Source: Chaenocephalus aceratus (Eukaryota; Chordata; Actinopteri; Perciformes; Channichthyidae). Taken from it: DNA of 64,000 nt. Shown piece after piece: positions 61,206-63,186 of this stretch. The notes below the pieces were generated by a model, which saw only the letters and a list, made by a program, of their open reading frames with translations, did no database searches and was not told the origin of the DNA. A program made the position numbers and the translations under genes. Location: the NCBI GenBank assembly GCA_023974075.1, contig JAMFTG010000568.1:56374-120373 (forward strand), given 5' to 3'. Positions within the stretch are counted from its first letter, which is position 1, and each line of letters starts with the position of its first letter.

Positions 61206-61344
61206 CATCTGTGCAAGCTGGCGGGTCCGCCAGGAGTAATTGGTCACTTCGCCTAACGGCTCGTTCCCTAAGCCGCCATTTTGTGTATGCACCGCCATTT
61301 TGTATTCAATAAAAAACAAGTATTCATTCAAACTGTTTCTTTAT

Positions 61345-62281
61345 TCAGTAATTGTAAGGGACAGTTGGGTTGTAAGCAGGGCAAGCATTAAAATCAATAA
61401 ATGCATTGGTAGAATGGCACCACACTTTATAAACATTGATCCGCCTCATAAGAGCAGTTGGATCAAATGTCTCGAATTTGTACCACTGGGAAACAGGAGA
61501 GTTTGAAGTAATGCAAATGTTCTTAGCCAAGAACTGAACAAAGCCCCCCTTGATGGGCACACGGTGGGGATAACGGTCGGTGATGCAAAGCATTTCATCA
61601 TACTTCATCCATCCATAGAAGTCATCCATGATGACGGTCTCCTGACCAGAATATCCATCCCACCATTCGCCGCGGGTTTTGTAATACACGTTCTCGCCGG
61701 CAGGAAAAGCTTCTGCGCATGCGCACGATTTGCCACATCCGGGAGGTCCTTCATAAACAGTGACGTTGGTCTTCCAGTCACGTGGCTTCTGGATCCGCGC
61801 GGTGTCCACCCATTGGTTGAAGCCCCGCCCATATCGAATGTATACACTTGGCAGTTGCTGGGCAAGTTCAAACATGTTCCCGCCATTCGATTTCAATATC
61901 TCAACTGCCGCATCGATATCAGACCGTTTTCCTTGAGCTGACGGAGTACCAATGGCCAGGTATATATCACCATCTTTAGAGCAGTATGTTTCATTGTCTT
62001 TATCCGTACCCTTCGCCTGTTCCAGATGGGCTCGGGTAGTGACGAAGGCTTTCACTTGAGAAAGCCGGACTTTGGTCTTTAAATTCATAAAGCCTTGCAG
62101 ATGCGGGGTGCCGTTGGCGCCGGTTTTCCTTAGCAACAATAGCATAAATGCATGTAGCATCTGTTAGCTTAGCTTTTATCAACTCCAGATCCGCATCTGT
62201 ATAGTTATTAAGGGTAAAAACCCAACGCTTAGCTGGGTTGTCCCTCTTAGATGATGATTGCTTGGATTTAGTCGGTGCCAT
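61345..62281 (-). pseudogene. rep: Circovirus replication initiator protein (Rep), frameshifted
   Basis: The start at 62281 opens with a Lys/Ser-rich stretch and RCR motif I (FTLNNY). A one-base shift near 62125, in an A-rich stretch, moves reading to the frame ending at 61345. That frame has motif II (PHLQGF), motif III with the nicking Tyr (YCSKDGD), Walker A (GPPGCGKS), Walker B (VIMDDFYGW) and motif C (ITSN), the full order of HUH-endonuclease plus SF3-helicase Rep proteins. Apart from the shift the roughly 310 codons are open, which is unusually good preservation. An AATAAA overlaps the stop codon. Rep would nick the origin and drive rolling-circle replication. Confidence 0.92.
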
Positions 62282-62293
62282 GGTTCCGTGGTG

Positions 62294-62327
62294 CCGAGGT
62301 TGACGGTAATACTAACGTCAACCTTGG
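62294..62327 (-). promoter_or_regulatory. Circovirus origin stem-loop
   Basis: AGGTTGACG (62297-62305) and CGTCAACCT (62316-62324) form a perfect 9-base stem that extends by three more pairs including one G-T. The 10-base loop reads, on the minus strand, TTAGTATTAC, which contains the circovirus nonamer TAGTATTAC. Rep nicks TAGTATT/AC. The hairpin lies between the divergent rep and cap starts, as expected. Confidence 0.95.
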
Positions 62328-62359
62328 AACATTTTCTCTTTTATAGATTCCAACGCAAG

Positions 62360-62892
62360 ATGGCGCCACGCAGGCGCACTAAAACAAAGAGGAGAAGCCG
62401 TGCGAGGGCACCACTGCGCAGGCGCAGATCAACTAAAGTGCGTGCAATGAATGGGAATACATTCGTATGGAAGAAAACTGGTCAGATGGAGTGGGTTGTA
62501 CCAGCGAAGTCAAGCACAGCAGTAGCTGGCAACTTCTTCGCAGTAGGAGTTAAACTGACAGACTTTCTTACCGCATCCCATTGGGATAGGTTCATGTTTG
62601 CTAAAGTTAAAGTGGAAATTAAACCACGTACGCCACTTATAACGTAACAAATACAACCAATCAATCCGTGATCGACTACGACGATCTAACCTACACCCCA
62701 ACAAACAAGGCCCCATACTACGGCTTTGCTACAGCCAGAAACTGGAGTGCAAAACACGGGATGACCCGGACATTCGTCCCAAGATTCTTCCATGTGGCAG
62801 GAGCACAAGCCAAAAACAACTGGCTAGATTGTAATTCTGGACAAGACGTCGTCCATTACGGACTAAAGGTGTGGCATGAGGCATACATGTAA
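62360..62892 (+). pseudogene. cap: Circovirus capsid protein (Cap), frameshifted and short
   Basis: The start at ATG 62360 opens with an Arg/Lys-rich tail (MAPRRRTKTKRRSRARAPLR), the nuclear-localisation and DNA-binding N-terminus typical of circovirus Cap. The first frame stops at 62647. A second frame, open from about 62644 to the stop at 62892, continues with capsid-like text (DLTYTPTNKAPYYGF). The two are separated by a small indel near 62640. In total only about 177 codons are present, shorter than the usual 210-240, so C-terminal sequence is also missing. A plus-strand AATAAA follows at 63066. Confidence 0.85.
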
Positions 62893-62966
62893 TCATCACT
62901 GCATGGATTACGTTTCAGGGACTGCTGACTTTACAGTAAATGCAGATCAACGATCCTCGATTCCCA

Positions 62967-63186
62967 TCTGTGCAAGCTGGCGGGTCCGCCAGGAGTAATC
63001 GGTCACTTCGCCTAACGGCTCGTTCCCTAAGCCGCCATTTTGTGTATGCACCGCCATTTTGTATTCAATAAAAACAAGTATTCACTCAACTGTTTCTTTA
63101 TTCAGTAATTGTAAGGGACAGTTGGGTTGTAAGCAGGGTCTGCTTGGATTTAGTCGTGCCATGGTTCCGTGGTGCAGAGGTTGACG
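62967..63186. repeat. Partial second circovirus unit (terminal redundancy)
   Basis: It repeats 61206-61382 almost exactly, starting CCATCTGTGCAAGCTGGCGG, then jumps at AAGCAGGG to TGCTTGGATTTAGTCG (equivalent to 62258-62305), deleting about 876 bases of rep. It contains the small inverted repeat CTGGCGGGTCCGCCAG. It ends at GAGGTTGACG, the left stem of the origin. Confidence 0.9.

What the first reader, a model, noticed from the sequence alone, without database searches (positions are those of the whole stretch)
61206..63186. Well-preserved endogenous circovirus with ambisense rep and cap
The sequence shows a near-complete circovirus layout: divergent rep and cap, the origin hairpin between them and convergent poly(A) signals. 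It is established that circoviral fragments occur in vertebrate genomes, but usually only rep pieces. A locus with both genes and origin, needing only one frame correction in rep, suggests a fairly recent germline entry and gives a fossil of a fish circovirus.
Basis: partly seen in the sequence, partly recalled or inferred. Interest (0 to 1): 0.9.

Follow-up and report, generated by a model that had tools for sequence, protein, structure and literature searches.

The report
Young endogenous circovirus in Antarctic icefish
A small DNA virus of fish is inserted nearly whole in the genome of an Antarctic icefish, a well-preserved example of a known kind of viral fossil whose ends suggest how it was inserted.

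Summary
Confirmed and extended. Window 61202-63186 is an integrated circovirus: Rep (-), Cap (+), origin hairpin with TAGTATTAC, convergent poly(A) signals. [quoted passage not shown] a contig of identical length).

Three things were missed. (1) The element exceeds one circle: unit 1758-1759 nt, 61202-61381 repeated at 62961-63138, and the rep start/origin repeated at 63141-63186. Its right end lies 2 nt from the Rep nick site. I read it as a nicked rolling-circle strand joined to host DNA (inferred). (2) Contig C357 carries the same insertion with the same junctions. Near the end of the window's contig the two differ mostly by single-base indels, so its broken frames are probably read errors in part. 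C357 has an open Cap frame and a nearly complete open Rep frame; no assembled copy has Rep open from ATG to stop. (3) Two other loci hold rep of related viruses (dN/dS 0.07-0.25): probably separate entries.

The redundant copies differ at 3 of 227 sites: 0.5-6 million years at an assumed rate. Tandem near-complete circoviruses are known in carps, so this is a new member of a known kind.

The parts
61202..63186 (.). integrated circovirus, 1985 nt, unit 1758-1759 nt
   Evidence: self-repeats at spacing 1757-1759; host repeats on either side broken here
61202..61381 (.). left copy of the terminal redundancy (rep 3' end and intergenic region)
   Evidence: 97.2% identical to 62961-63138; 98.9% for the same pair in C357
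62961..63138 (.). right copy of the terminal redundancy
61345..62281 (-). rep, in two overlapping open frames (62000-62281 and 61345-62160)
   Evidence: frames; Pfam Viral_Rep and RNA_helicase on the longer piece; named relatives are circovirus Reps; Rep structure 7lar E 8.5e-65
62291..62330 (-). origin hairpin, nonamer TAGTATTAC at 62306-62314
62357..62892 (+). cap, broken in this contig (frames end at 62647 and 62892)
   Evidence: frames; Circo_capsid on both pieces; unbroken 178-codon frame in C357
63141..63186 (-). second copy of rep start and half origin; 877 nt of rep missing before it; ends 2 nt from the nick site
   Evidence: 95.7% identical to 62259-62305
61340..61345 (-). AATAAA at the rep stop
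   Evidence: sequence of repeat D2; same site in C357
63066..63071 (+). AATAAA downstream of cap
   Evidence: placed in the window by the repeat register
60533..61201 (+). left host flank: interspersed repeat of about 782 nt, cut by the element about 113 nt before its end
63192..64000 (+). right host flank: multi-copy transposon, Harbinger-like by the look of a C357 frame (recalled), truncated, after a 5-nt filler
   Evidence: frame

Best explanation
A single-stranded fish circovirus replicated by rolling circle in a germline cell of an icefish ancestor. Rep nicked the strand at TAGTATT/AC; a linear strand longer than one genome, starting at that nick, was joined to a host break. The right end (63186, 2 nt from the nick) is the strand's 5' end. 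Read from there, the strand carries the rep start, a jump over 877 nt of rep, the rep 3' end, cap, the origin, a full-length stretch of rep, and stops near the cap 3' end at 61202. Host ends were joined with about 1 nt of overlap (left) and a 5-nt filler (right), truncating a repeat copy on each side. Shown: the repeat arithmetic, the junctions, shared junctions in two contigs, domain identity. Inferred: the Rep-nicked strand as substrate, the end-joining, the date. Today it is a fossil; no function is shown.
For: The circle is followed without a break for 1937 nt (61202-63138) against a unit of 1759, which a single opened circle cannot give. The right end maps to 62305/62306 and the nick to 62307/62308 (nick position in the nonamer recalled); an end within 2 nt of it by chance is about 5 in 1759 (my arithmetic). 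Junctions are the same in C568 and C357, with 98.8% identical DNA to the left (window 52758-61113) and C357 running on for over 100 kb to the right. Rep, Cap and origin are as in circoviruses. The redundant copies differ at 3 of 227 sites in C357.
Against: Attachment of Rep to the 5' end is not visible in sequence. One junction near the nick site is one observation. The 877-nt deletion might be later. C568 and C357 stop matching left of window 52758, which is unexplained. No reads were seen.
Confidence: 0.8

Rival explanations
1. Contaminating or present-day virus sequence misjoined into the assembly.
For: C568 ends 814 nt after the element, and the contig end looks error-rich.
Against: Two contigs share both junctions; in C357, 169,041 nt long, the element lies well inside. 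The redundant copy carries an 877-nt deletion and differs from the first copy.
Confidence: 0.03
2. The substrate was not a Rep-nicked strand but a double-stranded dimer or recombinant concatemer that broke at random.
For: Longer-than-unit content would also follow; end-joining signs at the junctions are not specific to ssDNA.
Against: One end sits 2 nt from the nick site.
Confidence: 0.25
3. The broken frames in the window are true mutations of an old pseudogene.
For: Rep in C357 also lacks an in-frame ATG at the expected place, so not every defect is confined to the end of C568.
Against: Over 60476-63985, next to the C568 end, C568 and C357 differ by 17 indel events, all of one base, and 5 substitutions; over 52758-60475 by 14 and 42 (Fisher p 6e-5). 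The published assembly is from PacBio reads (PMC7307600, passages).
Confidence: 0.25
4. C568 and C357 are two places in the genome (a segmental duplication) rather than two haplotypes or overlapping contigs of one place.
For: They match only from window 52758 rightward; in the 60 kb of C357 compared (L007-L012) there is no other match to the window of 400 nt or more at 98%.
Against: The breakpoint lies in a multi-copy repeat, where misassembly is common; 3 substitutions in the 1982 aligned sites of the element fit alleles.
Confidence: 0.4
5. The rep gene has been kept by the icefish for a function of its own.
For: A 306-codon frame is open in C357; an intact, predicted-expressed rep is reported in Kryptolebias (PMC6372831, passage); rep frames at the other loci hold no stop over the stretches compared.
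Against: A young insertion would be open by default; transcripts were not looked at; the low dN/dS between loci fits divergence as viruses.
Confidence: 0.05

Closest known systems
CVe-Cypriniformes of common carp and Sinocyclocheilus (PMC6372831, passages)
   Same: endogenous circovirus in fish with rep and cap, more than one unit in tandem, related to fish circoviruses
   Different: those are multiple complete genomes in tandem, over 39 million years old by orthology; this one is little more than one unit, young by its redundant copies, and in an Antarctic icefish
Endogenous rep of Kryptolebias marmoratus (P0024; PMC6372831)
   Same: fish circovirus rep with an open frame
   Different: 59% identical over 78% of the query; on another branch of the tree
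Exogenous fish-type circoviruses (Werosea P0003, Abudefduf bengalensis P0009, bream 1 P0014, Pseudorasbora 2 P0015, barbel P0021)
   Same: Rep domains; nonamer TAGTATTAC in the fish rows seen of the table in PMC11784310 (passage)
   Different: at most 63% Rep identity to a named virus; here integrated and with broken frames
P0002, protein of an unnamed 1896-nt contig
   Same: closest Rep in the database outside the window's own, 65% over 97% of the query
   Different: source and host unknown

Membership tests
Circoviridae, genus Circovirus (as the virus that integrated) | Rep with rolling-circle endonuclease and helicase domains | tested here: met
   PF02407 and PF00910 over cut-off; best PDB match 7lar, Rep, 8.5e-65
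Circoviridae, genus Circovirus (as the virus that integrated) | circovirus capsid protein | tested here: met
   C357 copy 64.7 bits against cut-off 36.2; window pieces below it singly; no protein-database or PDB hit for the C357 Cap at E 0.001
Circoviridae, genus Circovirus (as the virus that integrated) | divergent genes with the origin hairpin between their 5' ends, nonamer on the rep strand (strand rule recalled) | tested here: met
Circoviridae, genus Circovirus (as the virus that integrated) | circular genome of about 1.7-2.1 kb (recalled; aquatic ones 1.3-2.3 kb in PMC11784310, passage) | tested here: met
   repeat spacing 1757-1759 nt
Circoviridae, genus Circovirus (as the virus that integrated) | groups with circoviruses in a Rep tree | tested here: inconclusive
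   28 rows (24 of the 120 listed database Reps plus four of this genome), none of the cycloviruses included: nested among fish-type circoviruses, but the forks joining it to them have ultrafast bootstrap 85-94
Endogenous circoviral element (CVe) | host DNA joined to virus on both sides | tested here: met
   two contigs, same junctions
Endogenous circoviral element (CVe) | inherited: present in other individuals or species | not testable with these tools
   only the window's own fish genome is held; P0006 is 95% identical to the C44 rep over 190 residues, but its source is unnamed

The most novel reading that the evidence does not exclude
A circovirus lineage of Antarctic notothenioid fishes, not found in the papers searched, has entered the icefish germline at least three times, last within about the past few million years, and the youngest copy preserves a Rep-nicked, longer-than-unit rolling-circle strand caught in the act of integration, so that Rep's own nick, not random breakage, set where the virus joined the chromosome.
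Probability: 0.45. Interest if true: 0.6.

Novelty: new member of a known kind. Interest (0 to 1): 0.45.

Why it matters
It places fish circoviruses in an Antarctic fish lineage, on a branch with no named exogenous member among the 28 rows of the tree, and its terminal redundancy gives a built-in clock like the two LTRs of a retrovirus. The junction at the nick site makes the question of how circoviruses without an integrase enter chromosomes testable by comparison. It also warns that frame breaks near contig ends of long-read assemblies should not be read as decay.

Tried and rejected
Rejected: the weak Circo_capsid hit on C13 (L006) lies over a low-complexity run and matches none of the four rep and cap pieces. 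A copy of the window's left-flank repeat lies about 560 nt from the virus in C44, which looked like a shared target. Among nine other held pieces (82 kb) seven have no copy, one has the C44 copy and one has another; the window has one more besides the flank copy. By my arithmetic a copy within 560 nt has a chance of a few per cent, and in C44 it is not at the junction, so I treat it as coincidence without having excluded a preference. Capture of the virus by a transposon was considered: the flank repeats are truncated at the junctions, and the other copies examined (18 left, 13 right) run through without virus. An empty site was not found: 60420-60517 matched only C568 and C357, but only 40 of 1882 candidates were scored. 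The missing end of the left repeat was not found in the 60 kb of C357 compared: none of the 18 downstream stretches matched there within its first 188 nt. IMG/VR gave no relative. COX1 for naming the host gave 0 matches. The C357 Cap had no protein or PDB hits at E 0.001.

Full report
What is there. On the minus strand of 61345-62281 lies a rep gene in two overlapping frames, on the plus strand of 62357-62892 a cap gene in two pieces, and between their 5' ends a hairpin whose loop holds TAGTATTAC. The Rep piece 61348-62160 matches Viral_Rep (3.4e-14) and RNA_helicase (1.3e-12) over their cut-offs, 520 of 782 candidates in the protein database at E 0.001 (120 listed, the window's own among them), and the Rep structure 7lar at 8.5e-65 (that this is a porcine circovirus is recalled). 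The usual rolling-circle and helicase motifs can be read by eye in the two pieces (motif names recalled).

Host. The 600-codon frame at 41732-43531 is 99% identical over 88% of its length to a Chaenocephalus aceratus protein on a contig of 167,244 nt. The window's own genome holds that protein at 100% over residues 1-530 of 592 on contig C416, whose length is also 167,244. The published assembly is PacBio, FALCON-Unzip, 1.06 Gb in 3,852 contigs before linkage mapping (PMC7307600, passages); the genome here has 1.064 Gb in 3032 contigs. I take the host to be the blackfin icefish.

More than one unit. 61202-61381 recurs at 62961-63138, and 62259-62305 recurs at 63141-63186. So the circle measures 1759 nt here and 1758 in C357; the element runs once round and on for 178 nt, then skips 877 nt of rep and ends in the origin. 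The right end corresponds to 62305/62306; Rep nicks TAGTATT/AC (position recalled), here 62307/62308. The end is therefore 2 nt from the nick.

Junctions. To the left, an interspersed repeat (41 matches from 40 scored of 1882 candidates, the window and C357 included) is cut after AAAGC with a T shared with the virus; 18 of 18 other copies examined run on with the repeat's own sequence. To the right, after five extra bases, a multi-copy transposon begins inside its body: 13 of 13 other copies examined have the same transposon sequence upstream of that point (52 matches from 40 scored of 1851 candidates). C357 shows the same two junctions. The block shared by the contigs covers window 52758-64000 and stops on the left in a multi-copy repeat; whether it is one place or two stays open.

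Frames. C568 and C357 differ over 52758-60475 by 42 substitutions and 14 indel events, but over 60476-63985, next to the end of C568, by 5 and 17, the 17 all of one base (Fisher p 6e-5). Two results weigh against a clean reading: most of the 42 substitutions lie left of 55500, in and beside a repeat, which inflates the contrast, and in C357 the 306-codon rep frame has no in-frame ATG at the expected start. Cap in C357 is open for 178 codons; the fish capsids in the table rows that I saw have 166-227 aa (PMC11784310, passage).

Age. The two redundant copies were presumably one sequence when the strand was made. In C357 they differ at 2 of 180 and 1 of 47 sites: 1.3%, 95% range 0.27-3.9%. At an assumed 3e-9 per site per year (recalled, not measured here) this is 2.2 (0.45-6.4) million years; 0.14 to 9.7 across rates of 1e-8 to 2e-9. 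In C568 the copies differ at 4 of 224 sites and by 3 indels.

Relatives. The Rep piece finds five matches on four contigs, C568, C357, C44 and C1556; the Viral_Rep family finds four, one on each. C44 and C1556 keep rep fragments 77-78% identical in DNA to the window; C44 also keeps the origin. Over existing frames dN/dS is 0.09 (C357-C44, 192 codons, dS 1.3), 0.07 (C357-C1556, 162 codons, dS 1.1) and 0.25 (C44-C1556, 116 codons, dS 0.54). Silent change of this size cannot have arisen at host rates since this element entered, and the protein was constrained meanwhile, so I infer that the three diverged as viruses and entered separately; long retention under selection in the host is the alternative. 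A simulation of neutral change (11% assumed per branch) keeps the three frames free of stops in 2, 6 and 11% of trials, which is weak alone. In the 28-row tree the icefish frames form one clade with the unnamed P0006 (100/99), apart from the next circoviruses; 12 of 25 inner branches are well supported and 6 are open. P0006 is 95% identical to C44 over 190 residues, perhaps its orthologue in a related fish.

What is known. Dennis and colleagues report full-length tandem circoviruses in carp and Sinocyclocheilus and an intact rep in Kryptolebias, and the fish rows of their species table that I saw name no notothenioid (PMC6372831, passages); their companion paper adds two fish, neither a notothenioid (PMC6069186, passages). 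A later screen reports further novel loci in ray-finned fish (PMC11089739, passages). Neither that paper nor PMC11521997 has the words Chaenocephalus, Notothenia or icefish in its main text; supplements were not read, so this locus may be listed there. In the held papers 'circovir' with 'notothenioid' gave 1 paper and with 'icefish' 2 (listings only), none on circoviruses of these fish by title. So: a new member of a known kind, with unusually informative ends.

Noticed in passing
L002 (C1556) 1105-1167 and 1180-1905: Next to the broken rep lies a second rep-start piece that is 90% identical to the C44 virus but only 80% to the matching part of its own neighbour: two related viruses, or a chimera, at one site.
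   Followed up: partly
L004 (C44) 1334-2325: Another circoviral locus with origin, cap start and a rep cut before its end; a near copy of its frame exists in an unnamed 982-nt contig (P0006).
   Followed up: partly
window 59441-60406 (-): Helitron-type frame (Helitron_like_N 1.4e-15) left of the element; 58430-58903 (-) looks like its helicase part by eye.
   Followed up: no
window 52758-53584: Multi-copy repeat at which C568 and C357 stop matching: structural variant, duplication or misassembly.
   Followed up: partly
window 60533-61201 and loci L040-L057: Apart from C357, the copies closest to the window's (96-98%) lie on contigs under 200 kb and on C73 (7.2 Mb); those listed on chromosome-sized contigs are 84-91% alike, as are some on short contigs. 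Perhaps a younger subfamily in an unplaced part of the genome.
   Followed up: no
window 32001-38000: Strong negative GC skew (-0.25 to -0.65) over 6 kb, with a reverse-transcriptase-like frame at 34957-35496 by eye.
   Followed up: no
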